Source: Acidovorax sp. Leaf78
GTDB taxonomy: Bacteria; Pseudomonadota; Gammaproteobacteria; Burkholderiales; Burkholderiaceae_C
Reading direction: 5' to 3'
DNA length: 64,000 nt
NCBI RefSeq assembly: GCF_001422735.1
Contig: NZ_LMLZ01000004.1
Span: forward strand, 62,001-126,000
The notes under the pieces were generated by a model, which saw only the letters and a program-made list of their open reading frames with translations, was not told the DNA's origin and searched no databases. The position numbers were made by a program, and so were the translations under genes. Of the stretch, positions 40,455-55,630 are shown piece by piece; position 1 is the first letter of the stretch, and the number at the start of each line of letters is the position of its first letter.

Positions 40455-40494
40455 CTGTCATGCCGCTGACATGCCATCGACATGCCGATGTCAT
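40455..40494 (+). promoter_or_regulatory. Double Pho box upstream of the lipid-remodelling operon
   Basis: Four heptamers lie at exact 11-bp steps: CTGTCAT (40455), CTGACAT (40466), TCGACAT (40477) and ATGTCAT (40488). The spacers are GCCG, GCCA and GCCG. This is the arrangement of two adjacent PhoB sites (consensus CTGTCAT, 4-bp spacer, CTGTCAT). It lies 93-132 bp before the olsB-like start. Confidence 0.8.
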
Positions 40495-40586
40495 GGGCCC
40501 ATCCCACACTGCGGCGCAGGGAACAGATTCCCTGGCCGCTGCGGGAATGTTCGCTCCTGTGGCCCTACATCAGGAGATGTTGCACC

Positions 40587-41423
40587 ATGAATGAGCTGTC
40601 CGCCTTGACGCCGATCCTGCCCCACGATGCGCTGCCCCATGGCGCCCTGCAAGCCCCAGGTGCCGTGCCCGGCGCAGCAAGGACAGCGCCCGAGCGTGGC
40701 GCCATCCAGGTGACCTGGGCGCGGCACGAAGATGAAGTGCGCCAGGCGCAGAAACTGCGGTTCGATGTGTTCGCGGCGGAGATGGGCGCTCGATTGACGA
40801 CCCCCATCGCCGGCCACGACGTGGACCTGTTCGACGATTATTGCGAGCACCTGTTGGTGCGCGATGCTCAGAGCCAGCAAGTCATTGGGACTTACCGAGT
40901 GCTCACGCCAGCCCAGGCCCGCCGCGTCGGCAGCACCTACAGCGACACTGAATTCGATCTGACCCGCCTGCGCACCCTGCGTCCGCGCATGGTCGAACTG
41001 GGCCGCAGCTGCGTGCACCCGGACCACCGCCACGGCGGCGTGATCATGGCGCTGTGGAGCGCGCTGGCCGACTTCATGGTGCGCAACCAGCTCGACACCA
41101 TGATCGGCTGCGCCAGCATTCCCATGCTGCACAACGGCGTGATCAGCGGCGATGCCGCCGCCAGCATCTGGAACCAGGTGCGCCAGACGCACCTGGCCCC
41201 CATCGAATACCACGTGCTGCCCCGCCTGCCGCTGCCCATCGACCAACTGGACGGCTCGGTCTTCGTGGAGCCGCCGGCCCTGATCAAGGGGTACCTGCGC
41301 CTGGGTGCGCGGGTGCTGGGCGCCCCCGCGTGGGACCCGGACTTCAACACGGCAGACCTGCCCATGCTCATGCGGCTGGCAGACCTGCACCCGCGCTACC
41401 GCAAGCACTTTCTGGGGGCCTGA
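40587..41423 (+). CDS. olsB: OlsB-type L-ornithine N-acyltransferase
   Basis: A 278-residue GNAT-like acyltransferase. The family pattern is followed closely: AQKLRFDVFAAEMG, YCEHLLVRD, VIGTYRVLTP, YSDTEFDLTRL, VELGRSCVHPDHR and MIGCASIPM. OlsB adds a 3-hydroxyacyl chain to ornithine, giving lyso-ornithine lipid; OlsA, not in this window, adds the second chain. Ornithine lipids are phosphate-free and replace phospholipids in many bacteria under phosphate limitation. ATG 40587 has AGGAG at 40571-40575. The double Pho box upstream and two downstream lipid-remodelling genes support the role. Related 'hemolysin-like' acyltransferases are the main alternative. Confidence 0.82.
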   Translation: MNELSALTPILPHDALPHGALQAPGAVPGAARTAPERGAIQVTWARHEDEVRQAQKLRFDVFAAEMGARLTTPIAGHDVDLFDDYCEHLLVRDAQSQQVIGTYRVLTPAQARRVGSTYSDTEFDLTRLRTLRPRMVELGRSCVHPDHRHGGVIMALWSALADFMVRNQLDTMIGCASIPMLHNGVISGDAAASIWNQVRQTHLAPIEYHVLPRLPLPIDQLDGSVFVEPPALIKGYLRLGARVLGAPAWDPDFNTADLPMLMRLADLHPRYRKHFLGA

Positions 41424-42301
41424 TGCGCGCCGCGTTCGACGCGCTCGGCGACTGGACTGCACACGTGGGAGGTGGGCAGGACCCTGCCGCCGACGCCGCC
41501 GACGACGCGCATCCACCAGGACACCGGCATCTGCGAGCGGTGTTCATCTCCGACCTGCACCTGGGCACCCCCGGCTGCCAGGCCGAGGCCCTGCTCGACT
41601 TCCTGAAGCACCACCCCAGCGACCATCTGTACCTGGTGGGAGACATCGTGGACGGCTGGCAACTGCGCCGCCGCTGGTTCTGGCCCCAGGCCCACAACGA
41701 CGTGGTGCAAAAGCTGCTGCGCCGTGCGCGCAAGGGCTGCCGCGTGGTCTTCGTGCCCGGCAACCATGACGAGTTCGCCCGCGCCTTCGTCGGCCACTCG
41801 TTCGGCGGCATCGAGGTGGCCGAGGACACCGTGCACACCACGGCCGACGGCCGCACGCTGTGGGTGACGCACGGCGACTACTTCGACGGCGTGATCCAGT
41901 GCGCCAAGTGGCTCGCCTACGTGGGCGACAATCTCTATGAGTTCACCCTCAAGCTCAACCGCTACCTGAACACCCTGCGCGCGCGCATGGGGCTGCCGTA
42001 CTGGTCGCTCTCGGCGTACCTCAAGGGCAAGGTCAAGAAGGCGCTGAACTACGTGACCGACTTCGAGGTGGCGGTGGCTGCCGAGGCCCGCCGCCGCGGC
42101 CATGGCGGTGTGGTGTGCGGCCACATCCACCGTGCCGAGATGCGCGAGATCGACGGCACGCTGTACTGCAACGACGGCGACTGGGTGGAGAGCCGCACTG
42201 CGCTGGTAGAACACATGGACGGCCGGCTCGAACTGGTGCAATGGCATGCGCCCGCGCCGCAACGCGCAGCGTCCCCTGTGGCAGCGGAGGCTACGGTATG
42301 A
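41423..42301 (+). CDS. plcP: PlcP-like metallophosphoesterase (phospholipase C type)
   Basis: A 292-residue calcineurin-like phosphoesterase. Metal motifs in order: SDLHLG (43-48), GDIVDGW (about 73), GNHDE (about 113), THGDYFD (about 150) and CGHIHR (about 233). WFWPQAHNDVVQKLLRRARKG and NDGDWVESRTALVEHMDG match PlcP-type proteins better than true LpxH, which is shorter (about 240 residues). PlcP strips headgroups from phospholipids, releasing diacylglycerol and recyclable phosphate. Automated pipelines would probably call it UDP-2,3-diacylglucosamine diphosphatase. Its start overlaps the olsB-like stop, and the glycosyltransferase gene overlaps its own stop, so all three are coupled. Confidence 0.72.
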   Translation: MRAAFDALGDWTAHVGGGQDPAADAADDAHPPGHRHLRAVFISDLHLGTPGCQAEALLDFLKHHPSDHLYLVGDIVDGWQLRRRWFWPQAHNDVVQKLLRRARKGCRVVFVPGNHDEFARAFVGHSFGGIEVAEDTVHTTADGRTLWVTHGDYFDGVIQCAKWLAYVGDNLYEFTLKLNRYLNTLRARMGLPYWSLSAYLKGKVKKALNYVTDFEVAVAAEARRRGHGGVVCGHIHRAEMREIDGTLYCNDGDWVESRTALVEHMDGRLELVQWHAPAPQRAASPVAAEATV

Positions 42302-43389
42302 GAATCGCACTGGTCACCGACGCATGGCGTCCCCAGGTCAACGGTGTGGTCACCACCCTCCTGGAGCTGGTGCATGAGCTTGAGGCGCTGGGGCACGAGG
42401 TGCGGGTGATCGAGCCCGGCCAGTTCCAGACGCGTCCCTGCCCGGGCTATGCGGGCATCGACCTGGCGGTGCGCCCCGCAAAGCAGGTGGCCCGCATGCT
42501 CGACGAGATCCAGCCCGACGCCATTCACCTGGCCACCGAGGGTCCGCTGGGCTGGGCCGGGCGGCGCCATTGCCTGCGCAAGGGCCTGGCCTTCACCACG
42601 GCGTTTCATACCCGCTTTCCGGAGATATTGCAGGCAGCCCTGCGCGTGCCGCTGTCGTGGGGGTATGCGCTGTTCCGGCATTTTCATCGGCCTTCGTCGG
42701 GTGTCATGGTGCCCACGCAGGGCGTCCTGCAGATGCTGGCACAACGGGGCTTCGGCAACTTGCGCCTGTGGACGCACGGCGTCGACACGCAGGCATTTTC
42801 TTTCCACGGCGAAGTGGCCCACAGCCCGCTCACGGGCACGCTGGCCCATCCCGTTGCCTTGTACGTGGGGCGGGTGTCGTACGAGAAGAACATCGAGGCC
42901 TTCCTGCAGCTGGACATGCCGGGCACAAAAGTGGTCTGCGGCGTCGGGCCGCTGGAGGCGCGCCTCAAAGCCCGCTACCCGCAGGTCCGCTGGCTGGGCA
43001 TTCTGGAGCGGTCGGCGCTGGCTCGGGTGTATGCGGCGGCCGATGTTTTCGTGTTTCCAAGCCGCTCGGAAACCTTTGGCCTGGTGATGCTGGAAGCCAT
43101 GGCCTGCGGTACGCCGGTGGCGGCATTCCCCGTCGACGGGCCCATGGAAGTGCTCGGGGCCCATGCGGGCGAGGCACCGCAGGGCGGCGTGCTGCATGAC
43201 AGCCTGCTGATTGCTGCGCAGGAAGCGCTGGCCATTCCCCGGTGCGAGGCGCGTGCCCGTGCATTGGATTTCACCTGGGCACACGCGGCACGCCTGTTCG
43301 AGCAGCACCTCGTACCTGCGCGCTCCGGCACCGTGACGGTGCCGCCATCTGTCACAAAATCTGTCACATCACTGTCATCTGGGCGTTAA
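42298..43389 (+). CDS. agt: Agt-like family 4 glycosyltransferase for glycolipid synthesis
   Basis: A 363-residue GT-B transferase. The N-terminal half has MRIALVTDAWRPQVNGVV, HLATEGPLGWAGRRHC and FTTAFHTRFPE. The C-terminal half has VALYVGRVSYEKNIEAFL, FPSRSETFGLVMLEAMACGT and a conserved Glu pair. These match Agt-type enzymes, which transfer glucose or glucuronate from a UDP-sugar to diacylglycerol. The start overlaps the plcP-like stop by four bases (ATGA). Adjacent plcP and agt is a known pairing for phosphate-limited lipid remodelling. GDP-mannose-dependent mannosyltransferases of the same family are the main alternative. Confidence 0.72.
   Translation: MRIALVTDAWRPQVNGVVTTLLELVHELEALGHEVRVIEPGQFQTRPCPGYAGIDLAVRPAKQVARMLDEIQPDAIHLATEGPLGWAGRRHCLRKGLAFTTAFHTRFPEILQAALRVPLSWGYALFRHFHRPSSGVMVPTQGVLQMLAQRGFGNLRLWTHGVDTQAFSFHGEVAHSPLTGTLAHPVALYVGRVSYEKNIEAFLQLDMPGTKVVCGVGPLEARLKARYPQVRWLGILERSALARVYAAADVFVFPSRSETFGLVMLEAMACGTPVAAFPVDGPMEVLGAHAGEAPQGGVLHDSLLIAAQEALAIPRCEARARALDFTWAHAARLFEQHLVPARSGTVTVPPSVTKSVTSLSSGR
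43361..43378 (+). promoter_or_regulatory. Pho box of ppk, inside the end of the glycosyltransferase gene
   Basis: CTGTCAC (43361) and CTGTCAT (43372) are 11 bp apart, with a third CTGTCAC at 43349. TAAATA at 43387-43392 fits a -10 element 8 bp downstream, the PhoB-dependent promoter geometry. Confidence 0.78.
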
Positions 43390-43428: not shown

Positions 43429-45627
43429 ATGCTGCCTTTGCTTTCCGATGACGCTGCCGCCATGCGGTTCGATACCGCTGCCATGACCGAACACCCTCTC
43501 GCTGCCTTGTCACATGACCGTCACGACGGTGCCCCGGCTGCACTGACGCAGGCCGCGCAGTTGCCTGCGTTCCTTGACCGCGACCACAGCATCCTGGCCT
43601 TCAACGAGCGCGTGCTCGACTGGGCGGTGCGCAGCGATGTGCCGCTGCTGGAGCGGCTGCGCTACCTGTGCATTGTTTCTTCCAACCTCGACGAGTTCTT
43701 TGAAGTGCGGGCTGCGCCGCACATCACCGCAGCGCAAAAAGGCGAAACGCAGGGCCGCTACTCCACCGCCTCGTTCGAAGCCGTCGCCGCCAAGGTGCAC
43801 GGCCTCGTCGAGCGCCAGTACGCGCTGTACAACGAGGCGCTGGTCCCCGCGTTTGCCGAGCATGGCATCCGCATCTTGGGTCACGGCGAGCGCTCGCCAG
43901 CGCAAAAGCGCTGGGTGCAGGACTACTTTGCCAGCGAAGTGCGGCCCCTGTTGATCCCGGTGGGGCTTGATCCAGCGCACCCGTTTCCGCAGGTGGCCAA
44001 CAAGTCGCTCAATTTCATCGTGCGCTTGAAAGGGCACGATGCCTTTGGCCGCGAAAACGAAATCGCCATCGTCAAGGTGCCACGGGCTCTGCCGCGGCTC
44101 GTGCGCATCCCGGAGCGCGTGGCCTCCGAGCGGAACCTCTTCGTCAGCCTGTCCAGCATCGTGCGGTCCCATCTGGAGGATTTGTTCCCCGGCCGGGAGG
44201 TCACGGAGTTCTCGCAGTTCCGGGTGACCCGGCACTCGGACCTGGCACTGGACGAGGAAGACGTCCGCAACCTGCGGACCGCGCTGCGCCAGGGGCTGCA
44301 GCACCGCCACTACGGCCAGGCCGTGCGGCTGGAAGTGTCCTCCGGCTGCTCACAGTTCCTGTATGACTTTTTGCTCGCGCAGTTCGGCCTGCCTGCGGCG
44401 GCCCTGTACCGTGTGCAAGGCCCCGTGAACCTGGTGCGCTTGACGCAACTGGTGGACCTGGTCAACGACCCCTCGCTGATGTTTGCGCCGTGGAACTCCG
44501 CGTGGCCGCGCCAGTTGCAGCCCGGCATGCCGATCATGGAACAGCTGCGGCGGCGCGATGTGTTGATCCACCAGCCGTTCGAGAGCTTCGACGGCCTGCT
44601 GGCATTCCTGCGGGAGGCGGTGAACGACCCCAACGTGCTGGTCATCAAGCAGACCATCTACCGCACGGGGTCGGATTCAGAACTCATGGACCTCCTGACC
44701 GAGGCGGTGCGCCGCGGCAAGGAGGTGATGGCGGTCGTGGAGCTGAAGGCGCGCTTTGACGAAGAAGCCAACATCAACTGGGCTGAGGCGCTGGAGTCCA
44801 TCGGCGCGCAGGTGGTGTACGGGGTGGTGGGCCTCAAGACCCACGCCAAGATGCTGCTGGTCACGCGCAGGGAAGGGCGGCAGCTCAAGCGCTACGGGCA
44901 CCTGTCCACCGGCAACTACAACATGCGGACCGCCAAGCTCTACACCGACCTGAGCTACCTCACTGCCGACGAAGACATGACCGCCGACATGGACGGCGTC
45001 TTCAACCATCTGGCCAGCCAGAACCGGCCCCCCCGGTTGCGCAAGCTCATGTTGGCCCCGTTCCATCTGCACCGGCGCATGCTGGAGAAGATCGAGCAGG
45101 TGGGCCTGGCGGCCAGCCGGGGCGAGGATGCCCGCATCGTCGCCAAGATGAACTCTCTGACGGACGAGGCGCTCATGCGGGCGCTCATCCTGGCAGGGCA
45201 GCGCGGTGCGCGCATCGACCTCATCGTGCGCGGTGCGTGCATGCTGCCGGCCGGGCTGCCGGGCGCGACGGAGAACATCCGGGTGCGCTCGGTCATCGGA
45301 CGATTCCTGGAGCACACGCGGGTCTTTTACTTCCTGGCGGGCGAGCAGGAGGACCTGTACCTCTCCAGCGCCGACTGGATGAACCGCAACATGATGCGGC
45401 GCGTGGAACTGGCCTGGCCTGTGACCGACCCGTCGCTGCGCCAGCAGATCGTGGACGAGTGCCTGGTAGCCTATCTGCACGACAACCGCGATGCCTGGAC
45501 GCTGAATGCGGAGGGCGGTTACGACCGTGCCGCGCACCCGACCGACGGCGTGGGTGCGCAAGACGCACTGATGGTTCGCTACGGGCCTGTGCCGCCCGCG
45601 GGGGCTGTCGAGCAAGGGGCTGCATGA
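43429..45627 (+). CDS. ppk: Polyphosphate kinase 1
   Basis: A PPK1 of up to 732 residues that makes long-chain polyphosphate from ATP. The N-terminal domain starts FLDRDHSILAFNERVLDWA, and the catalytic histidine is in VVGLKTHAKMLLVTRR. YGHLSTGNYNMRTAKLY and DEDMTADMDGVFNHL are also family-typical. The start is uncertain: ATG at 43429, 43462 and 43483 are all in frame, none with a good ribosome binding site. The last gives 714 residues, closer to E. coli (688). A Pho box lies just upstream, and sixA follows with overlap. Confidence 0.95.
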   Translation: MLPLLSDDAAAMRFDTAAMTEHPLAALSHDRHDGAPAALTQAAQLPAFLDRDHSILAFNERVLDWAVRSDVPLLERLRYLCIVSSNLDEFFEVRAAPHITAAQKGETQGRYSTASFEAVAAKVHGLVERQYALYNEALVPAFAEHGIRILGHGERSPAQKRWVQDYFASEVRPLLIPVGLDPAHPFPQVANKSLNFIVRLKGHDAFGRENEIAIVKVPRALPRLVRIPERVASERNLFVSLSSIVRSHLEDLFPGREVTEFSQFRVTRHSDLALDEEDVRNLRTALRQGLQHRHYGQAVRLEVSSGCSQFLYDFLLAQFGLPAAALYRVQGPVNLVRLTQLVDLVNDPSLMFAPWNSAWPRQLQPGMPIMEQLRRRDVLIHQPFESFDGLLAFLREAVNDPNVLVIKQTIYRTGSDSELMDLLTEAVRRGKEVMAVVELKARFDEEANINWAEALESIGAQVVYGVVGLKTHAKMLLVTRREGRQLKRYGHLSTGNYNMRTAKLYTDLSYLTADEDMTADMDGVFNHLASQNRPPRLRKLMLAPFHLHRRMLEKIEQVGLAASRGEDARIVAKMNSLTDEALMRALILAGQRGARIDLIVRGACMLPAGLPGATENIRVRSVIGRFLEHTRVFYFLAGEQEDLYLSSADWMNRNMMRRVELAWPVTDPSLRQQIVDECLVAYLHDNRDAWTLNAEGGYDRAAHPTDGVGAQDALMVRYGPVPPAGAVEQGAA

Positions 45628-46088
45628 TGGACCTGATCCTGTGGCGCCACGCAGAGGCGGAAGAGCCGCAAGAGGGCCATGACGACCTGGCGCGGGCGCT
45701 GACGCCACGGGGGGAGAAGCAGGCAGCCCGCATGGCCGTCTGGCTGGATCGCCAACTGCCCGAGGGGCTGCGCGTGCTGGCCAGCCCCGCCCGGCGTACC
45801 GAGCAGACGGCCAGTGCCCTCGGCCGCAAGTTCAAGATGCGCGCCGAATTACTACCAGGGTGCACCCCGCAGGAGCTGCTGGAGCTGGTGCAGTGGCCGC
45901 GTTCGAAGGGCGCCGTGCTGGTCATTGGCCACCAGCCAGTGCTGGGCCAGACCATTGCGCAACTGATGGGCCTGCAGGCCGCAGACTGCGCCGTGCGCAA
46001 GGGGGCGGTGTGGTGGCTGCGGCAGCGCCAGCGCATGGATGAAAGCCAGACGCTGCTGCTGGCGGTCCAATCGCCGGACCTGCTGTAG
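45624..46088 (+). CDS. sixA: SixA-type phosphohistidine phosphatase
   Basis: A 154-residue histidine phosphatase with MDLILWRHAEAEEPQEGHDD (the RH motif at residues 8-9), SPARRTEQTA and VIGHQPVLGQ, whose histidine completes the site. SixA removes phosphate from phosphohistidine on phosphotransfer proteins. It overlaps the ppk stop (ATGA) and so belongs to the same transcript. This suggests a link with phosphate or polyphosphate metabolism, though the substrate here is unknown. A second ATG three bases on is equally possible. Confidence 0.85.
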   Translation: MMDLILWRHAEAEEPQEGHDDLARALTPRGEKQAARMAVWLDRQLPEGLRVLASPARRTEQTASALGRKFKMRAELLPGCTPQELLELVQWPRSKGAVLVIGHQPVLGQTIAQLMGLQAADCAVRKGAVWWLRQRQRMDESQTLLLAVQSPDLL

Positions 46089-46925: not shown

Positions 46926-48404
46926 TCAGGCCAGGCCGACGGCCAACTCCCAGGGGGTCTTCAGCCAGGCCTGCGTTTCCTCGCGCAGCAAGTGCGCCGA
47001 CTGCGGGTACGCGGCAGCCCAGCCAGGGCGCGCCGCCAGATGAAAACGCGGGCCATCCTGCCGCAGCGCAAGACCCGCGGTGTCCGGGTCGCGGCGGGCG
47101 TGGCACAGGGCCACAGCCAGGCGCAAGCTCAGCAGTTGCAGCGCGAACATCGGGTCCAGCAGATCCGCCTCGATCTTGCGGACCTTGCCGCGTTGCCCCT
47201 GTACCAGGATTCCCAGGCGGTGTAGTTCCGGCACGGCAAAGCCGGCGGCGTCGGTGTTGTCCAGGATGTAGGCGCCGTGGCGGTGGTAGTCGCTGTGCGA
47301 GACGAGGCAGCCGATCTCGTGCAGGCGGGCTGCCCAGTCGAGTTTGCGTGCGGCGCGCTCGCTGCCGGCGGGGGCGGCCTGGTCGAACAAGGCGCATGCC
47401 GTGCGCGCCACCCGCTCGGCATGTTCGGCATCCACCCCAAAACGCTGCATCAGCCCGTTCACGGTGGTGGTGCGCAGGTCGGTGCCGGGCTGCTCGCGGT
47501 CCAGCAGGTCGTACAGCGCGCCCTGGCGCAGCGCGCCTTGCGCGACCTGCATCTGGTCGATCTCCAGCAGGTCGAACACAGCCCGCAGCACGCTGACGCC
47601 GCCGCCGATCACGGCGCGGCGCTCTTCCTTCAGACCGTCCATGCGCAAGCGTTCGGCCGTCTGCGCGCGCAACAGCCGCTCGTGCAGCCACGCCAGCCCC
47701 TCGCGGGTGATGGTGCCGGGCGTGCCTCCGGCAGCGGCCAGAATGTCGCCCACCGCACCCGCCGTGCCGGACGAGCCATAGGCCACCTCCCACGCATCCG
47801 GGCGAAACGTTCCCAGGGCCTCGTCGAGCACGGCCTTGGCCGCAATCTCTGCGGCGAGGAATGCCGTGGCCGTGAATTCGCCTTGCGGAAAGTAGCGCTG
47901 CGACCAGGCCACACTGCCCACGCGGAACGATGCCACCGCATGGGGCGTGAATTGCTGTCCCAGAATGAGTTCGGTAGACCGCCCGCCGATATCGATGACC
48001 AGACGGCGTTCATCGGACTGGGGGAGCAGGCGTGCAACGCCCTGGTAGATCAGGCGCGCTTCTTCGGGGCCCGACACCACGTCGATCGGGTAGCCCAGCA
48101 TCTCGCTGCCGCGCGACAGGAATTCCTCGCGGTTGCGCGCCTCGCGCAGGGTCTGCGTGGCCACGGCGCGCACCTGGGCGCGGGGAAACCCCGCCAGGCG
48201 CTCGCCAAAACGCGCGAGACACGCCCACCCGCGCTCCATGGCCTCCGGGGTCAGGTTGCGGTCTTCGTCCAGCCCGTTGCCCTGGCGGACGGTTTCTTTC
48301 AGATATTCGACCCGCTGTATGTGACCGAACTCGTAGCGCCCTATTTCAAGGCGAAAACTGTTGGAGCCGAGGTCGACTGCGGCGAGGCGTGTGCCGTTGT
48401 GCAT
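46926..48404 (-). CDS. ppx: Exopolyphosphatase / Ppx-GppA family phosphatase
   Basis: A 492-residue ASKHA-fold phosphatase. LAAVDLGSNSFRLEIG at the N-terminus, ATQTLREARN, the phosphate-2 motif VIDIGGRSTELILG and GSSGTAGAVGD define the family. A C-terminal HD-like region (WAARLHEIGCLVSHSDYHRH) is present. It hydrolyses polyphosphate from the chain end and, in some members, pppGpp. Here it is opposite in strand to ppk, unlike the ppk-ppx operon of E. coli, and divergent from pstS. A Pho box about 125 bp upstream suggests PhoB control of both enzymes. Confidence 0.93.
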   Translation of the reverse strand: MHNGTRLAAVDLGSNSFRLEIGRYEFGHIQRVEYLKETVRQGNGLDEDRNLTPEAMERGWACLARFGERLAGFPRAQVRAVATQTLREARNREEFLSRGSEMLGYPIDVVSGPEEARLIYQGVARLLPQSDERRLVIDIGGRSTELILGQQFTPHAVASFRVGSVAWSQRYFPQGEFTATAFLAAEIAAKAVLDEALGTFRPDAWEVAYGSSGTAGAVGDILAAAGGTPGTITREGLAWLHERLLRAQTAERLRMDGLKEERRAVIGGGVSVLRAVFDLLEIDQMQVAQGALRQGALYDLLDREQPGTDLRTTTVNGLMQRFGVDAEHAERVARTACALFDQAAPAGSERAARKLDWAARLHEIGCLVSHSDYHRHGAYILDNTDAAGFAVPELHRLGILVQGQRGKVRKIEADLLDPMFALQLLSLRLAVALCHARRDPDTAGLALRQDGPRFHLAARPGWAAAYPQSAHLLREETQAWLKTPWELAVGLA

Positions 48405-48595: not shown

Positions 48596-48629
48596 TTGTC
48601 ACTGAATTGTCATCTTGGCCCCCTAGAGT
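48596..48629 (+). promoter_or_regulatory. Pho box and -10 element of pstS
   Basis: TTGTCAC (48596) and TTGTCAT (48607) are 11 bp apart. TAGAGT at 48624-48629 follows exactly 10 bp after the second heptamer, the standard PhoB-activated promoter layout. Confidence 0.8.
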
Positions 48630-48668: not shown

Positions 48669-49691
48669 ATGAAACGCACATTTCTCAAAACCGTTGCAGT
48701 CGCACTGGCCACCTTCGCGGTCGGTGGTGCCTTTGCAGCGGACATCACCGGCGCTGGCGCTACCTTTCCCTTCCCGATGTACGCCAAGTGGGCAGAAGCC
48801 TACAAGAAGGAAACCGGCACGGGCCTGAACTACCAGTCCATCGGCTCGTCCGGCGGCATCCGCCAGATCCGCGCCAAGACCGTCGTGTTCGGCGCCACCG
48901 ACGCCCCGGTCCCCGGTGCTGACCTCGACAAGGACGGCATGGTGCAGTTCCCCGCCATCATCGGCGGCACGGTGCCCGTGATCAACCTGGATGGCTTCAA
49001 GCCCGGCGAACTGCGCGTCACGGGCCCCGTGCTGGCCGACGTGTTCCTGGGCAAGATCGCCAAGTGGAACGACGCCAAGCTGGCGGCCCTGAACCCCGGC
49101 AAGACCCTGCCTGACCAGAACATCACCGTGGTGCACCGCGCCGACGGCTCCGGCACCACCTTCAACTGGACGGACTACCTGTCGGCCGTGAGCAAGGAGT
49201 GGGCTGACTCCGTGGGCAAGGGCGCTGCCGTCAAGTGGCCCGCAGCGTCGTCCGTGGGCGGCAAGGGCAACGAAGGCGTCGCCGCCAACGTCTCCCGCGT
49301 GAAGGGCTCCATCGGCTACGTCGAATACGCCTACGTCAAGAAGAACAACATGAACTTCCTGCAGCTGCAAAACGCTGACGGCAAGTACGTGAGCCCCGAC
49401 GACAAGACCTTCGCCGCCGCTGCCGCCAGCGCAGACTGGTTCAGCGTGCCCGGCATGGGCATCTCGATGGTCAACGCCAAGGGTGCCGACAGCTGGCCCG
49501 TCAGCACGGCCTCGTTCATCCTGATGTACAAGGACCCGGCCGACAAGGCGCAATCGGCCGAAGTGCTCAAGTTCTTCGAATGGGCCTTCAAGAACGGCAA
49601 GGGCATGGCCACCGAACTGGACTACGTGCCCCTGCCTGACAGCCTGACCGCCGAGATCCGATCGAAGGTCTGGTCGCAAATCAAGAAGTAA
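48669..49691 (+). CDS. pstS: Phosphate ABC transporter binding protein PstS
   Basis: A 340-residue periplasmic protein with a signal peptide ending around residue 23 (GGAFA). The mature protein begins ADITGAGATFPFPMYAKWAE, the phosphate-loop region of PstS. GATDAPVPGADL, VVHRADGSGTTFNWTDYL and GYVEYAYVKKNNM are further contacts or family motifs. It captures inorganic phosphate with high affinity and passes it to PstCAB. A strong Pho box precedes it. AAAGGTAA (48657-48664) is the ribosome binding site. A large hairpin follows the gene. Confidence 0.97.
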   Translation: MKRTFLKTVAVALATFAVGGAFAADITGAGATFPFPMYAKWAEAYKKETGTGLNYQSIGSSGGIRQIRAKTVVFGATDAPVPGADLDKDGMVQFPAIIGGTVPVINLDGFKPGELRVTGPVLADVFLGKIAKWNDAKLAALNPGKTLPDQNITVVHRADGSGTTFNWTDYLSAVSKEWADSVGKGAAVKWPAASSVGGKGNEGVAANVSRVKGSIGYVEYAYVKKNNMNFLQLQNADGKYVSPDDKTFAAAAASADWFSVPGMGISMVNAKGADSWPVSTASFILMYKDPADKAQSAEVLKFFEWAFKNGKGMATELDYVPLPDSLTAEIRSKVWSQIKK

Positions 49692-49726
49692 TTAACTCCA
49701 ACAATAAAAGCAGTCTGCCCCAAAAT

Positions 49727-49763
49727 AGTACCCATCGGCCGGCCGGTCTGGCCGATGGGTACT
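49727..49763 (+). promoter_or_regulatory. Large intercistronic hairpin between pstS and pstC
   Basis: AGTACCCATCGGCC (49727-49740) and GGCCGATGGGTACT (49750-49763) form a perfect 14-bp stem with a 9-nt loop. No U-run follows. This favours 3'-end protection of the pstS message over termination, keeping binding protein in excess of permease. Confidence 0.75.
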
Positions 49764-49800
49764 GGTTTGTGGGGCCTCCAGAAGCCAGATGGGAGTCAAC

Positions 49801-50811
49801 ATGAGCGTGGGAACCACCATGAGTTCGCAACCCGTGTCCGTCAACAAAGTGACGGGCGCCCCCACAGAGTCCATGGTCTCGATTGCCAAGCGGCAACGCC
49901 TGCAGGACATCTTTTTCCATCGCCTGACCCAGAGCCTCTCGCTGCTGGTGCTCGCAGCGTTGCTGGGCATCATCGTCTCTCTTTTCGTCTACGCGTGGCC
50001 TACGTTCCACAAGTTCGGTGCCCAGTTCATCTGGCGTGTCGAATGGGACATCATCAATGAAGAATTCGGTGCCGCGATCGCCATCGTCGGAACCCTGGCC
50101 AGTGCCGGCATCGCACTGCTGATTGCGGTGCCGCTCGCCTTCGGCATCGCCCTGTTTCTGACGGAAACCTGCCCCGTGTGGCTGCGCCGCCCGCTGGGCA
50201 CGGCCGTGGAGTTGCTGGCGGCCGTGCCATCCATCATCTACGGCATGTTCGGCCTGTTCGTGTTTGCGCCGCTGTTCGCAGACTACTTCCAGATGCCGGT
50301 GCAAAAGCTGCTCGGTTCCATGCCGCTGGTGGGCTTTTTGTTTGGCGGCAGCACCAACGGCTTCGGCATCCTGGCGGCGGGCATCGTGCTCGCGTTCATG
50401 GTGCTGCCCTTCGTGGCTGCAGTGATGCGTGACGTGTTCGAGATCGTCCCTCCCATCCTGCGCGAGTCGGCCTATGGCCTGGGCTGCACGACATGGGAAG
50501 TGGTGCGCCGCGTGGTGCTGCCCTACACCCAGAAGGGCGTGATCGGCGGCGTGATGCTGGGCCTGGGGCGCGCTCTGGGCGAGACCATGGCCGTGACCTT
50601 CGTCATCGGCAACGCCAACCGCATGCCCACGTCGCTGTTCTCGCCCGGTACGTCCATCGCTTCCACGCTGGCCAACGAGTTCGGCGAGGCTGCGGACTTC
50701 CACCTGTCCACGCTGTTCGCCCTGGGCTTCCTGCTCTTCGTCATCACCTTCGTGGTGCTGTCGGTCGCCAAGATCATGCTGCTGCGCGCCGAGAAGGCCA
50801 AGGGCCTGTAA
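49801..50811 (+). CDS. pstC: Phosphate ABC transporter permease PstC
   Basis: A 336-residue permease with about six to seven membrane segments. The first helix is near residues 40-65 ([18 protein letters not shown]). [15 protein letters not shown] and [15 protein letters not shown] near the EAA loop are typical of PstC. GGGAG (49791-49795) supports ATG 49801; an in-frame ATG at 49789 has no such site. It pairs with PstA to form the channel. Confidence 0.95.
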
Positions 50812-50848
50812 GCCCTTCCATGAATCCACTCTATTGAGGCCAAGCTCC

Positions 50849-51703
50849 ATGGAATTCAACCAAACAATCTACAAGAAGCGCCAGCGCTCCAATGCCATCG
50901 GTCTGACCCTGTCCCTGGGTGCGATGGTGCTGGGCCTGTTCGTGCTGCTCTGGATCCTGAGTGTGCTGCTGTCCAACGGCTTCGCCGCGCTGGACTGGAA
51001 CATGTTCACCCAGTCGACCCCGGCCCCGGGCTCCGAAGGCGGTGGCCTGGCCAACGCCATCGTGGGCAGCCTGATGATGGTGGGCTTCACCGTGCTGGTG
51101 TCCACGCCCATCGGCGTGTTGGCCGGTGTTTACCTGGCCGAGTACAGTGGCCAGAGCAAGACGGCAGAGCTGACCCGCTTCGTGACCGACATCATGCTGT
51201 CTGCGCCGTCCATCGTGCTGGGGCTGTTCGTCTACGCGATCGCCGTGGCCACCGTGGGCAACTTCTCCGGCTGGGCCGGCAGCCTGGCCCTGTCGCTGAT
51301 CGCAGTGCCTGTGGTCGTGCGCACCACCGAGAACATGCTGCGCCTGGTGCCCGGCAGCCTGCGCGAAGCGGCGTTTGCCCTGGGTGCACCGCGCTGGAAG
51401 GTCTCCGTCATGGTCACGCTGCGCGCAGCGCGCAGCGGTGTGATGACCGGCCTGCTGCTGGCCGTGGCCCGCATCAGCGGCGAGACGGCGCCCCTGCTGT
51501 TCACCGCACTGAACAACCAGTTCTTCAGCACCAACATGAACGCTCCCATGGCCAATCTGCCCGTGGTGATCTTCCAGTTTGCGCTGAGCCCGTATGAAAA
51601 CTGGGTGCGCCTGGCCTGGGGTGGTGCATTGCTCATCACGCTGTCGGTGCTGATCCTCAACGTCGTGGCGCGGGTTTTCCTGCGCGAGAAGACCCGCGGC
51701 TGA
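50849..51703 (+). CDS. pstA: Phosphate ABC transporter permease PstA
   Basis: A 284-residue permease. ATG 50849 (MEFNQTIYKKRQRSNAIG) is preferred over a TTG at 50834. Membrane segments include GAMVLGLFVLLWILSVLL near residues 22-39. The loop GSLREAAFALGAPRWKVSVMV contacts the ATPase, and ISGETAPLLFTALNNQFF is highly conserved in PstA. It starts 38 bp after pstC. Confidence 0.95.
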   Translation: MEFNQTIYKKRQRSNAIGLTLSLGAMVLGLFVLLWILSVLLSNGFAALDWNMFTQSTPAPGSEGGGLANAIVGSLMMVGFTVLVSTPIGVLAGVYLAEYSGQSKTAELTRFVTDIMLSAPSIVLGLFVYAIAVATVGNFSGWAGSLALSLIAVPVVVRTTENMLRLVPGSLREAAFALGAPRWKVSVMVTLRAARSGVMTGLLLAVARISGETAPLLFTALNNQFFSTNMNAPMANLPVVIFQFALSPYENWVRLAWGGALLITLSVLILNVVARVFLREKTRG

Positions 51704-51763
51704 CCTGTCTGACCAGACACGCAGACACGCACCCCCAGACATCTCCATTTTCAGGATTTGACA

Positions 51764-52546
51764 ATGAACGCCACCGCTACCGCCACTGCCAGCAAGAACG
51801 CGCTGGAACTGCGCAACCTGAGTTTCTTCTACGGAAAATTCCAGGGCCTGCGCAACGTCAGCCTCAACATCGCAGAGCACAAGGTCACCGCTTTCATCGG
51901 CCCCTCGGGCTGCGGCAAGTCGACCCTGCTGCGCACGCTGAACCGCATGTACAGCCTGTACCCAGGCCAGCGTGCCGAGGGCACGATCAACTTCTACGGC
52001 CAGGACATCCTGGATGCCAAGCAGGACATCAACCTGCTGCGCGCCCGCATCGGCATGGTGTTCCAGAAGCCCACGCCGTTCCCCATGTCCATCTACGACA
52101 ACATCGCCTTCGGCGTGAAGCTCTACGAGAGCCTGAGCAAGAGCGAGATGGACGACCGCGTGGAATGGGCGCTGTCCAAGGCCGCGCTGTGGACCGAAGT
52201 GAAGGACAAGCTGCACCAGAGCGGCCTGTCGCTGTCCGGCGGCCAGCAGCAGCGCCTGTGCATCGCACGCAGCGTGGCGGTGAAGCCTTCGGTGCTGCTG
52301 CTCGACGAGCCCACCTCGGCGCTGGACCCGCTGTCCACCGCCAAGATCGAAGAGCTGATCGACGAACTCAAGCACGACTACACCATTGCCATCGTGACGC
52401 ACAACATGCAGCAGGCCGCACGCTGCAGCGACTACACCGCCTACATGTACCTGGGTGAAATGATCGAGTTCGGTGCCACCGAACAGATCTTCTTCAAGCC
52501 CGAGCGCAAGGAAACCGAAGACTACATCACCGGCCGTTTCGGCTAA
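51764..52546 (+). CDS. pstB: Phosphate ABC transporter ATPase PstB
   Basis: A 260-residue ABC ATPase. Walker A is GPSGCGKST near residues 47-55, the signature LSGGQQQRL near 149-157, Walker [14 protein letters not shown] and the switch histidine in [20 protein letters not shown]-type opening ([16 protein letters not shown]) is PstB-specific. ATG 51764 has AGGA (51753-51756) upstream; a TTG two codons earlier is unlikely. It powers phosphate import and takes part in PhoR signalling. Confidence 0.97.
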
Positions 52547-52558
52547 GGAGACAACGAG

Positions 52559-53260
52559 ATGCCCGATAAACATCTTTCCTCGCAGTTCGACAGCGAACTC
52601 AACAGCGTCTCCGCCCGTGTCATGGAGATGGGCGGCCTCGTGGAGTCGCAGATCCGCCAAGCGGTCTATGCCTTGTCCCAGTTCAGCCTGGAGGCCGTGG
52701 AAACCGTCGCCTCGATGGAGACCCGCATCAACGCGATGGAGGTCGAGATCGACCAGGAGCTGTCGTCCATCATCGCCCGCCGCCAGCCCACCGCGCGCGA
52801 CCTGCGCCTGCTACTGGCCTTCTCCAAGGCCACGGCCAACCTGGAGCGCATGGGCGACGAGGCCAACAAGATGGCACGCATGGTGCGCTCCATCATCGAG
52901 AGCGGCGCCCCGCGCTCGCTGCCGTCGAGCGACCTGCGCACCGCCGCCGAGCTGGCTTCGGGCCTGCTGCGCAAGACGCTGGACGCGTTTGCGCGCCTGG
53001 ACGTGAAGGCCGCCGTGGCCATCCTCAAGGAGGACGACCTCATCGACAAGGAGTTCGACGGCTTCGTGCGCAAGCTCGTCACCTACATGATGGAAGACCC
53101 CCGCACCATCTCCCCCAGCCTGGACCTGCTGTTCCTGGCCAAGGCGATCGAGCGCATCGGTGACCACTCCAAGAACGTGGCCGAGCTGATCATTTATCTG
53201 GTCAAGGGCAAGGATGTGCGCCACACTGCCCTCGACGAGATCGAGTCGGCCGTTCTGTGA
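52559..53260 (+). CDS. phoU: Phosphate signalling protein PhoU
   Basis: A 233-residue all-helical protein with two similar three-helix bundles. Each half contains a metal-binding E/DxxxD pattern (RMGDEANKMARM and RIGDHSKNVAELI). PhoU links the Pst transporter with PhoR to keep the Pho regulon off when phosphate is plentiful. TAAGGAG (52545-52551) precedes ATG 52559. Order pstSCAB-phoU-phoB-phoR is conserved in betaproteobacteria. Confidence 0.97.
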   Translation: MPDKHLSSQFDSELNSVSARVMEMGGLVESQIRQAVYALSQFSLEAVETVASMETRINAMEVEIDQELSSIIARRQPTARDLRLLLAFSKATANLERMGDEANKMARMVRSIIESGAPRSLPSSDLRTAAELASGLLRKTLDAFARLDVKAAVAILKEDDLIDKEFDGFVRKLVTYMMEDPRTISPSLDLLFLAKAIERIGDHSKNVAELIIYLVKGKDVRHTALDEIESAVL

Positions 53261-53283: not shown

Positions 53284-53373
53284 ATGACAGAACTCACTCC
53301 CATGCTCCGCCGCCACGCGGGCCGCTGCTTTCTGAGCGCAGCGCTTTCTCATCTGGGGGCGGCCCAGCGATGA
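53284..53373 (+). CDS. Possible 29-residue upstream peptide overlapping phoB
   Basis: A short frame begins ATG 53284 (MTELTPMLRRHAGRCF), ends LGAAQR and stops at TGA 53371-53373, overlapping the phoB ATG (ATGA). It could couple translation of phoB to an upstream peptide. It has no recognisable domain and may be chance. Confidence 0.3.
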   Translation: MTELTPMLRRHAGRCFLSAALSHLGAAQR

Positions 53374-54077
53374 GAAAACTCCCACGCGTCCTCATCGTCG
53401 AGGACGAACCCGCGATTGCCGAGCTGATTGCCGTCAATCTGCGCCACAACGGATTCCAGCCCTTCTGGGCGGAAGACGGCGAGTCCGCCCAGCGCGAGCT
53501 CGATGCCGTGCTGCCCGATGTCATCCTGCTGGACTGGATGCTGCCGGGCCAAAGCGGCCTGTCGCTGGCCCGCAAGTGGCGTGCCGACAGCCGCACCAAG
53601 CCGATCCCCATCCTCATGCTCACCGCCCGCGGCGACGAGCCGGACAAGGTGGCGGGGCTCGATGCCGGTGCCGACGACTACATCACCAAGCCGTTCTCCA
53701 CGCAAGAGCTGCTGGCCCGCATCCGCGCCGTGCTGCGCCGCCGCGCGCCGGAGCAGGTCAGCGACAGCGTGACCATCGGCGAGCTGGTGCTCGATGCCGG
53801 CACGTACCGCGTGACCTTCCAGGGCCAGCCGCTCAAGGTGGGCCCCACGGAGTTCAAGCTGCTGCACTTTTTGATGAAGCATGCCGAACGCGTGCACAGC
53901 CGCTCGCAGCTGCTCGACAAGGTGTGGGGCGACCACGTCTTCATCGAGGAGCGCACGGTGGACGTGCACGTCAAGCGCCTGCGCGAAGCCCTAGGGTCCG
54001 CGTCCGTCATGGTGGAGACCGTGCGCGGCGCAGGCTATCGCCTCACGGCGCAGCCGCAGGTGCAGTTGCAGGCCTGA
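53370..54077 (+). CDS. phoB: Phosphate regulon response regulator PhoB
   Basis: A 235-residue OmpR-type regulator. The receiver domain has the acidic pair at residues 11-12 (VLIVEDEPAI), the phosphoacceptor Asp55 in VILLDWMLPGQSG and the lysine in DYITKPFS. The winged-helix domain includes GPTEFKLLHFLMKHAERVHS and RTVDVHVKRLREAL. It should bind the Pho boxes listed here at 40455, 43361, 48528 and 48596. ATG 53370 begins the domain; the frame is open further upstream without similarity. Confidence 0.97.
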   Translation: MRKLPRVLIVEDEPAIAELIAVNLRHNGFQPFWAEDGESAQRELDAVLPDVILLDWMLPGQSGLSLARKWRADSRTKPIPILMLTARGDEPDKVAGLDAGADDYITKPFSTQELLARIRAVLRRRAPEQVSDSVTIGELVLDAGTYRVTFQGQPLKVGPTEFKLLHFLMKHAERVHSRSQLLDKVWGDHVFIEERTVDVHVKRLREALGSASVMVETVRGAGYRLTAQPQVQLQA

Positions 54078-54155: not shown

Positions 54156-54271
54156 GCCCGAACGGCATTAAATGATTGAACGCAAATCCGTATGAGCTTG
54201 TTTTTCTTGCTGTCTTGAACGGGGCGCACGCGTTGCGCCCCTGGTGTTTTTGTAAAGGCGTTGCGGACCGG

Positions 54272-55630
54272 ATGCTGTGGCGAATTACGTATTTTCTGCT
54301 CTGGCAGATTGCGGGCGGTAGCCTGGGCTGGTGGCAGGGAGGGCCGTGGGGCGCCGCACTGGGTGCCGCGCTGGCCGGGTGGGCCTGGTTTGTGTGGGAC
54401 CTGCTGCGCGGCGCGCGCGTGCTGCGCTGGCTGCGAACGGGCGATTTGACCGACGTGCCGTCCATGCGCGGCATCTGGGGCGAGGCGGCCGACCGGGCGC
54501 GGCGCCTGCTGCGCCGGCAGGAAGCGCAGATCCGCGACAGCCAGGACCGGCTGCAGGAGATCCTCGCCGCCCTGCAGGCCACGCCCAACGGCGTGGTGCT
54601 GCTCGATGCGCAGGGGCGCATCGAATGGTGCAACCAGATGGCGGCCAACCAGTTCGGCTTTGATGCGCAGCGCGACGTGATGCAGTCCATCGGCAACCTG
54701 GTGCGCGACCCCGAGTTCACCGCGTATTTTTCAGAGCAGAACTTTGCGCACGACGTGGTGCTGGAAGGGCGTTTCAGCACGCCGTCGCGACCGGTGCGGA
54801 TTTCGGTGCACCTGCACCCCTATGGCGACGGGCGCACTTTGCTGCTGTCGCGCGACGTGACGGCGCTGGAGCAGGCCGACGCCATGCGGCGCGACTTTGT
54901 GGCCAACGTGTCGCACGAGATCCGCACCCCGCTCACGGTGCTGACGGGCTTTGTGGAAACCCTGCAGACTTTGCCCTTGAATGCGGACGAACGGTCCCGC
55001 TACCTCGGGATGATGGCCCAGCAGGCCCAGCGCATGCAGAGCGTGGTGCAGGACCTCTTGACCCTGTCCCGGCTGGAAGGCAGCCCGCCTCCCGGCATGG
55101 CCGAATGGACACCCGTGCAGGCACTGCTGCAGCGCTGTGAGGAAGAAGGACGCGCGCTGTCGGCACTGCTCACGCAGAACCAGCCGAGGCACCATGTGAT
55201 GGCCTTTCCGGGTGCCGACACCTTGCGCGCCGAAGGCCAGATCGCCGGCGTGCCTGCCGAGCTGCAAAGTGCCCTGTCCAACCTGATCAACAATGCCGTG
55301 CGCTACACGCTCGCTGGGGGCTCGATCACGATTGCCTGGCAGCGTAAGGACGATGGCAGCGCCGTCTTTTCGGTGCAAGACACCGGCCCCGGCATCGCAC
55401 CCGAACACATTCCCCGCCTGACCGAACGCTTCTACCGCGTGGACCGCAGCCGCTCGCGCGAGACCGGTGGCACCGGCCTCGGGCTGGCCATCGTCAAGCA
55501 CGTGCTGCAGCGGCACGGCGCCACGCTCGAGATCACCAGCACATTGGGCAAGGGCTCGGTGTTTGCGGTGACCTTCCCGGCCAACCGGCTGCGCGGGTTT
55601 GCGCTGCCTGCCGCAGCGGTCACGGCCTGA
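54272..55630 (+). CDS. phoR: Phosphate regulon sensor histidine kinase PhoR
   Basis: A 452-residue kinase. The N-terminus has two short hydrophobic segments (about 3-30 and 20-50), then a PAS domain (GVVLLDAQGRIEWCNQMAA). The H-box is FVANVSHEIRTPLTVL near residue 214. The ATPase domain contains LINNAVRYT, DTGPGIAPEH and RSRETGGTGLGLAIVKH. ATG 54272 (MLWRITYFLLWQIAGG) is the likely start; an upstream TTG at 54176 lacks similarity. A palindromic repeat separates it from phoB, which may lower its expression. Confidence 0.94.
   Translation: MLWRITYFLLWQIAGGSLGWWQGGPWGAALGAALAGWAWFVWDLLRGARVLRWLRTGDLTDVPSMRGIWGEAADRARRLLRRQEAQIRDSQDRLQEILAALQATPNGVVLLDAQGRIEWCNQMAANQFGFDAQRDVMQSIGNLVRDPEFTAYFSEQNFAHDVVLEGRFSTPSRPVRISVHLHPYGDGRTLLLSRDVTALEQADAMRRDFVANVSHEIRTPLTVLTGFVETLQTLPLNADERSRYLGMMAQQAQRMQSVVQDLLTLSRLEGSPPPGMAEWTPVQALLQRCEEEGRALSALLTQNQPRHHVMAFPGADTLRAEGQIAGVPAELQSALSNLINNAVRYTLAGGSITIAWQRKDDGSAVFSVQDTGPGIAPEHIPRLTERFYRVDRSRSRETGGTGLGLAIVKHVLQRHGATLEITSTLGKGSVFAVTFPANRLRGFALPAAAVTA

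What the first reader, a model, noticed from the sequence alone, without database searches (positions are those of the whole stretch)
40455..43389. Compact olsB-plcP-agt operon behind a double Pho box: a phosphate-free lipid switch
Seen: four heptamers at exact 11-bp steps (40455-40494), then three genes overlapping by a few bases (TGATG at 41421-41425, ATGA at 42298-42301). Known: OlsB starts ornithine lipid synthesis, PlcP breaks down phospholipids to diacylglycerol under phosphate starvation, and Agt glycosylates diacylglycerol. plcP-agt pairs are described mainly in alphaproteobacteria and marine bacteria. Inference: this organism joins both replacement routes in one PhoB-driven transcript and would swap phospholipids for ornithine lipids and glycolipids. 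I am not aware of this three-gene layout being described in a comamonad. OlsA is absent here.
Basis: partly seen in the sequence, partly recalled or inferred. Interest (0 to 1): 0.72.

Follow-up and report, generated by a model that had tools for sequence, protein, structure and literature searches.

The report
Phosphate-starvation membrane-lipid swap operon
When phosphate runs out, this Acidovorax-like bacterium probably switches on three neighbouring genes that replace phosphate-containing membrane lipids with ornithine lipids and sugar lipids; the pathway is known, but this gene arrangement, common among its relatives, was not found described in the papers searched.

Summary
Four heptamers at 11-bp steps (40455-40494) are the best such array on either strand of the 64 kb, followed by overlapping olsB, plcP and agt. 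The naming mostly holds up. The genome has a separate LpxH; this PlcP is 53.5% identical to the S. meliloti PlcP and 23-24% to LpxH. Agt keeps 12 of 13 residues reported for the SAR11 enzyme. OlsA is absent from the locus; a candidate, not fully resolved, lies elsewhere in the genome.

The layout is not rare. olsB-plcP-agt occurs in 26 of 84 family loci examined and 17 of 80 named ones (Acidovorax, Polaromonas, Limnohabitans, Curvibacter among them), 34 of these 43 followed by ppk. A significant Pho array precedes olsB in 37 of 59 olsB-plcP loci tested, with none in coding or junction controls; the reverse strand gives 9 of 59.

New here: the arrangement (not found in the papers searched), and a lineage-specific Arg-to-His change at a position reported as essential in the SAR11 Agt. 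Transcripts, PhoB binding and lipid changes could not be tested. Verdict: a known pathway in a conserved arrangement; moderate interest.

The parts
40455..40494 (+). double Pho box: four heptamers at 11-bp steps, proposed PhoB site for olsB-plcP-agt
   Evidence: 23 of 28, best in window; significant arrays before olsB in 37 of 59 relatives tested
40587..41423 (+). olsB, proposed ornithine N-acyltransferase (first step of ornithine lipid)
   Evidence: Pfam Acetyltransf_5 2e-35; OlsB models are the two best NCBIfam matches but under their cut-offs; 51-55% identical to Burkholderia and Cupriavidus homologues, 32% to S. meliloti OlsB
41423..42301 (+). plcP, proposed intracellular metallo-phospholipase C (phospholipid to diacylglycerol)
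   Evidence: 53.5% identical to S. meliloti PlcP, 23-24% to LpxH; separate LpxH in genome
42298..43389 (+). agt, proposed GT4 diacylglycerol glycosyltransferase; His160 where 28 of 82 plcP-linked relatives have Arg
   Evidence: Pfam GT4 domains; residues and tree
43361..43378 (+). second Pho box, inside the 3' end of agt, before ppk
   Evidence: 13 of 14
43429..45627 (+). ppk1, polyphosphate kinase
   Evidence: Pfam PP_kinase domains
45624..46088 (+). sixA-like histidine phosphatase
   Evidence: Pfam His_Phos_1 1e-11
46926..48404 (-). ppx, exopolyphosphatase
   Evidence: Pfam Ppx-GppA 3.5e-73
48596..48613 (+). possible Pho box before pstS
   Evidence: 11 of 14, a score shared by four other places in the window; position before pstS
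48669..52546 (+). pstS, pstC, pstA, pstB phosphate transporter
   Evidence: PstB equivalog over cut-off; the other three by Pfam domain and position
52559..53260 (+). phoU
   Evidence: TIGR02135 over cut-off
53373..54077 (+). phoB (start chosen inside the longer open frame)
   Evidence: TIGR02154 329.6 bits over cut-off 296.2
54176..55630 (+). phoR
   Evidence: TIGR02966 391.8 bits over cut-off 334.2

Best explanation
The locus is a PhoB-controlled membrane-lipid remodelling operon at the head of the cell's phosphate island. When phosphate is low, PhoR (encoded 14 kb downstream) phosphorylates PhoB, which binds the double Pho box and starts an olsB-plcP-agt transcript. PlcP removes the phosphate head group from phospholipids and leaves diacylglycerol; Agt adds a sugar to the diacylglycerol, giving glycolipid; OlsB acylates ornithine, and an unlinked OlsA completes the ornithine lipid. 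A second Pho box probably starts ppk separately. Shown here: gene order, Pho-like sites, family placement of the proteins, conservation in relatives, and PhoB, PhoR, LpxH and an OlsA candidate in the same genome. Inferred: the single transcript, PhoB binding, enzyme activities, sugar identity, the OlsA step and the lipid change.
For: Pho array is the best in the window, 0 of 5000 simulations. Significant arrays before olsB in 37 of 59 olsB-plcP loci tested (59 of 61; two lacked upstream sequence), against 0 of 59 inside plcP, 0 of 59 at the olsB-plcP junction and 0 of 42 at the plcP-agt junction. Trio in 26 of 84 family loci and 17 of 80 named loci. PlcP apart from LpxH in identity and tree; own LpxH scores 199.3 bits over the 190.35 cut-off while PlcP scores 36.4. 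Agt residues and clade. OlsA candidate whose two best models are OlsA. PhoB and PhoR over cut-off downstream. PlcP-Agt and OlsB are reported as phosphate-controlled elsewhere (PMC8528852, PMC4796936, PMC11828411, PMC5082522; passages read, and one section of PMC4796936).
Against: 22 of 59 olsB-plcP loci lack a significant array, some with the full gene order (L017, L019, L021, L022); 9 of 59 pass on the reverse strand; some loci are near-copies, so the 59 are not independent. OlsB falls below the NCBIfam cut-offs. The OlsA candidate is also below them (125 and 111 of 300 bits), and it scores 95.5 on the general acylglycerolphosphate acyltransferase model, close to that model's cut-off of 102.95; S. 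meliloti OlsA scores 77.5 there. The branch that unites PlcP has only 79/65 support. Agt carries His at a position reported as essential Arg in the SAR11 enzyme (PMC8231724 passages). No expression or lipid data exist here.
Confidence: 0.85

Rival explanations
1. The phosphoesterase is an LpxH-type enzyme of lipid A synthesis and the locus is an envelope cluster without a phosphate role.
For: Weak similarity to LpxH models, 45.4 and 36.4 bits; public annotation gives the LpxH name to 23 of 29 plasmid records with a homologue.
Against: Both scores lie far under the cut-offs (134 and 190.35); the S. meliloti PlcP gets similar scores, 38.1 and 38.9; a protein over the LpxH cut-off is present elsewhere in the genome; identity is 53.5% to PlcP against 23-24% to LpxH.
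Confidence: 0.02
2. The Comamonadaceae Agt, with His in place of Arg at the acceptor site, does not make the usual glucosyl- or glucuronosyl-diacylglycerol but another product, or has weak activity.
For: His in 53 of 82 plcP-linked Agts; the 22 His rows in one tree form a single clade (100/97) and L193 gained His separately; the SAR11 Arg163 mutant was inactive (PMC8231724 passages).
Against: The other 12 listed positions are kept in the window, including the acceptor-site His104, present in 82 of 82; the change is stable over a large clade, which argues for a working enzyme. The match of this position to SAR11 Arg163 is inferred from motif and spacing, as the SAR11 sequence was not at hand.
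Confidence: 0.15
3. The three genes are separately controlled and olsB is made constitutively, as ornithine lipid is in Burkholderia sensu stricto.
For: Ornithine lipid formation is constitutive in Burkholderia sensu stricto (PMC7814305 passages).
Against: The genes overlap by 1 and 4 bases; a strong array before olsB in the window and none at the junctions of relatives.
Confidence: 0.08

Closest known systems
plcP-agt lipid remodelling genes of Pseudomonas aeruginosa, SAR11 and type II methanotrophs
   Same: plcP followed by a GT4 agt; Pho box reported in P. aeruginosa
   Different: here olsB leads the same unit; Agt has His160; the locus adjoins ppk, ppx and pst-pho
Pho-controlled olsB with unlinked olsA of Acinetobacter baumannii (PMC11828411)
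   Same: Pho box before olsB, olsA elsewhere
   Different: the paper's main text does not mention plcP (0 occurrences)
Burkholderia olsB (BCAL1281 of B. cenocepacia, PMC7814305)
   Same: homologous OlsB; in three Burkholderia genomes olsB lies beside a sixA-like gene; the paper predicts Pho boxes in 21 of 43 Burkholderia s.l. genomes
   Different: in the Burkholderia plcP-agt loci fetched no olsB lies in the stretch (up to 6 kb on each side)

Membership tests
PlcP (phosphate-starvation phospholipase C) | closer to characterised PlcP than to LpxH | tested here: met
   53.5% to S. meliloti PlcP (taken to be the characterised gene from its place beside an acyl-homoserine-lactone synthase and a LuxR gene, recalled), 23-24% to E. 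coli and own LpxH; PlcP group in 84% of bootstrap trees
PlcP (phosphate-starvation phospholipase C) | releases diacylglycerol from phospholipid under low phosphate | not testable with these tools
   needs lipid analysis
LpxH | scores over the curated LpxH cut-off | tested here: not met
   45.4 of 134 and 36.4 of 190.35 bits
Agt (GT4 diacylglycerol glycosyltransferase) | groups with plcP-linked Agts apart from other GT4 enzymes | tested here: met
   36 Agt rows in one group, 98/98, apart from 14 of the 21 GT4 proteins under 44% identity found in the same loci; these are of unknown function, no characterised GT4 was included, and one (L098) itself directly follows a plcP
Agt (GT4 diacylglycerol glycosyltransferase) | catalytic residues reported for the SAR11 enzyme | tested here: inconclusive
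   12 of 13 listed positions kept, His for Arg163; Asp256, also mutated in the paper, is Glu in the window and in 43 of 82 relatives (residues from PMC8231724)
OlsB | over NCBIfam OlsB cut-off | tested here: not met
   161.6 of 350 and 148.4 of 320 bits, though OlsB models rank first; S. meliloti OlsB passes one of the two. So OlsB is a working name, not a curated assignment
OlsB | homologous to Burkholderia OlsB | tested here: met
   51% to three Burkholderia proteins; the characterised BCAL1281 itself was not fetched
Pho regulon | Pho box before the operon | tested here: met
Pho regulon | PhoB-dependent expression | not testable with these tools
   needs phoB mutant and RNA
OlsBA ornithine lipid pathway | OlsA in the genome | tested here: inconclusive
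   one candidate, two best models OlsA at 125.2 and 110.7 bits, cut-off 300; general acyltransferase model 95.5, cut-off 102.95; S. meliloti OlsA hits it at 1.4e-24; the genome has other acyltransferases of this Pfam family

The most novel reading that the evidence does not exclude
The Comamonadaceae-type Agt clade has a remodelled acceptor site (His in place of the essential Arg), so that phosphate-starved comamonads make a glycolipid other than the usual glucosyl- and glucuronosyl-diacylglycerol, produced beside ornithine lipid from one Pho-controlled operon. The His clade also includes loci without a linked olsB, so the change is not tied to the trio.
Probability: 0.14. Interest if true: 0.55.

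Novelty: new variant of a known kind. Interest (0 to 1): 0.37.

Why it matters
If true, replacing phospholipids with both an aminolipid and a glycolipid is one co-regulated phosphate response in a widespread freshwater and soil family that the papers found here do not cover. It gives one operon to delete and a natural Arg/His pair of enzymes to compare, and it is a reminder that automatic annotation often names PlcP-like proteins after LpxH.

Tried and rejected
LpxH identity was tested and rejected. Grouping of Agt with other GT4 enzymes was tested only against GT4 proteins under 44% identity from the same loci; no characterised mannosyltransferase was at hand. The idea that the layout is special to this organism was rejected by synteny; the trio was not looked for among the phylum-wide loci. 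The idea that the Arg-to-His change came with the olsB linkage was rejected: plcP-agt-ppk loci without olsB have it too, and L193 gained it separately. Structure prediction was not run; it would not tell substrates apart. PDB sequence searches gave little: one weak LpxH hit for PlcP (E 0.0057), none for OlsB, four distant GT4-type hits for Agt.

The statement that the trio was not found in print rests on nine searches of an open-licence library. Several showed only part of their matches: 15 of 27, 20 of 27, 20 of 622 (none of the 20 mentions ornithine lipid), 12 of 1,867, 2 of 3. The genomic-context section of PMC4796936, read in full, says there are six plcP arrangements in marine bacteria; its text names no olsB next to plcP, and its supplementary table was not seen.
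Full report
Observation. The four-heptamer array is by far the best in the window (23 of 28; best non-overlapping site 18) and is not matched in 5000 simulated intergenic regions or 60 simulated whole windows. The window also holds a second strong Pho box before ppk (43361, 13 of 14) and a weaker one before pstS (48596, 11 of 14, a score shared by four other places). Downstream lie ppk, a sixA-like gene, ppx on the other strand, pstSCAB, phoU, phoB and phoR (pstC, pstA and pstS partly by position). The trio therefore heads a phosphate island.

Identity of the proteins. OlsB: the best NCBIfam matches are the two OlsB models, below cut-off. It is 51-55% identical to homologues of Burkholderia and Cupriavidus and 32% to S. 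meliloti OlsB; 35 positions are invariant across the 25 sequences aligned (rows of 200 residues or less would have been left out of that count). PlcP: 53.5% to the S. meliloti protein beside the acyl-homoserine-lactone synthase and LuxR genes, which I take to be the characterised PlcP from its position (recalled). LpxH of E. coli and of this genome are 23-24% identical, and the genome's own LpxH is on another contig. In the tree the 34 PlcP rows need one change, but support is modest (79/65; 84% of bootstrap trees) because the other phosphoesterases are very distant. Agt: of the 13 positions listed for the SAR11 enzyme in the passages read of PMC8231724, 12 are kept; Asp256, also mutated there, is Glu here. 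Position 104 separates the plcP-linked Agts (His in 82 of 82) from GT4 proteins under 44% identity in the same loci (His in 3 of 21). The 36 plcP-linked Agts in the tree are one group (98/98) apart from 14 of those 21; one of these outsiders, L098, directly follows a plcP, so a more distant glycosyltransferase can take that place.

One odd residue. Where SAR11 has Arg163, the window has His160. The match is inferred from the T-R-G-V-D motif and spacing. Among 82 plcP-linked Agts, 53 have His, 28 Arg and 1 an unread residue. In the tree, the 22 His rows form one clade (100/97); L193, a betaproteobacterial metagenome bin, gained His separately. In the SAR11 work the Arg163 mutant was inactive. 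Whether His changes the product is open.

OlsA. The locus has none. A search of the genome with S. meliloti OlsA finds one good candidate (1.4e-24) whose two best NCBIfam models are OlsA, at 125.2 and 110.7 bits, under the cut-off of 300. Against this, it scores 95.5 on the general acylglycerolphosphate acyltransferase model, nearly that model's cut-off (102.95), where S. meliloti OlsA scores 77.5. The genome holds further proteins of that Pfam family, so the candidate need not be the housekeeping enzyme, but the point is open. An unlinked olsA beside Pho-controlled olsB is already known in A. baumannii (PMC11828411 passages).

Distribution. In 120 genomes of the family, PlcP was found in 87, OlsB in 97 and an Agt-like protein at E 1e-30 in 75, many of which are distant GT4 proteins. 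I examined 84 family PlcP loci (of 87 genomes; the window itself and contig fragments from two genomes left out): 26 have olsB-plcP-agt in order, 21 of them followed by ppk within 500 bases, and 32 have olsB directly upstream of plcP. Some contigs end early, so these are lower bounds. Across the phylum, PlcP was found in 79 of 249 genomes. The nearest named PlcP, of Acidovorax sp. CF316 (92%), suggests that the window is from Acidovorax or a close genus; the tool warns that records nearer still may be left out. In seven genomes behind named loci, seen with about 1.5 kb on each side, the unlinked olsB lies beside ppk (Variovorax), a sixA-like gene (three Burkholderia), a sixA-like gene and ppx (Cupriavidus) or ppx (Bordetella); in Chromobacterium no such neighbour was seen. 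The simplest history is that olsB was already part of the polyphosphate cluster and plcP-agt joined it in the comamonad lineage (inference).

Regulation across relatives. A significant four-heptamer array (p 0.02 or less against 200 simulations of the same region) lies before olsB in 37 of 59 olsB-plcP loci; two more of the 61 had too little upstream sequence. About one would be expected by chance. The controls are 0 of 59 inside plcP, 0 of 59 at the olsB-plcP junction and 0 of 42 at the plcP-agt junction; the reverse strand of the upstream region gives 9 of 59. Before ppk (three heptamers) the count is 19 of 40; before plcP in plcP-agt loci without olsB, 27 of 40; before plcP with neither partner, 28 of 62. 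The 22 failures include loci with the full trio, so the site is common but not universal, or is too diverged for a consensus score. A few loci are near-copies of each other (for example L033 and L142, L139 and L141), so the counts are not fully independent.

What is known. PlcP-Agt remodelling is established in P. aeruginosa (PMC8528852; also the review PMC9804370), marine bacteria including SAR11 (PMC4796936) and a methanotroph (PMC9239053); Pho-controlled OlsB is reported in A. baumannii (PMC11828411) and Pseudomonas (PMC5082522), and predicted in Burkholderia s.l. (PMC7814305). I read passages of these, plus one section of PMC4796936. I found no description of olsB-plcP-agt as one unit, nor of this pathway in Comamonadaceae, in the searches, several of which listed only part of their matches; most subscription papers are outside that library.

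Verdict. The parts worth following are the co-regulation of both replacement lipids beside the polyphosphate gene, and the His/Arg split in Agt. On the second check I lowered the main confidence from 0.86 to 0.85 because of the OlsA candidate's score on the general acyltransferase model.

Noticed in passing
window 43361-43378: A second strong Pho box sits inside the 3' end of agt, before ppk; significant three-heptamer sites precede ppk in 19 of 40 relatives tested.
   Followed up: yes
window 37410-40409 (-): A divergent CHASE-PAS-GGDEF-EAL gene starts 45 bases from the Pho array; it is also present in the same-genus genome. A link between phosphate and cyclic di-GMP was not tested.
   Followed up: no
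L133 and L134 (CP090106.1): The record labelled S. meliloti plasmid pSymB is 3.7 Mb and carries hrcA, rpoN, mutS and lspA; it looks like the chromosome mislabelled.
   Followed up: no
plasmid records H20-H22 and H59-H61: Three P. aeruginosa plasmid records carry a plcP-agt pair.
   Followed up: no
plasmid collection: PlcP-like proteins (32-70% identical to the window's) carry the LpxH name in 23 of 29 records, including the S. meliloti one; the most distant of them may not be PlcP.
   Followed up: partly
L188: A contig titled Klebsiella pneumoniae (a metagenome bin) encodes a plcP-agt pair 62% and 49% identical to the window's proteins; the bin name is probably wrong.
   Followed up: no
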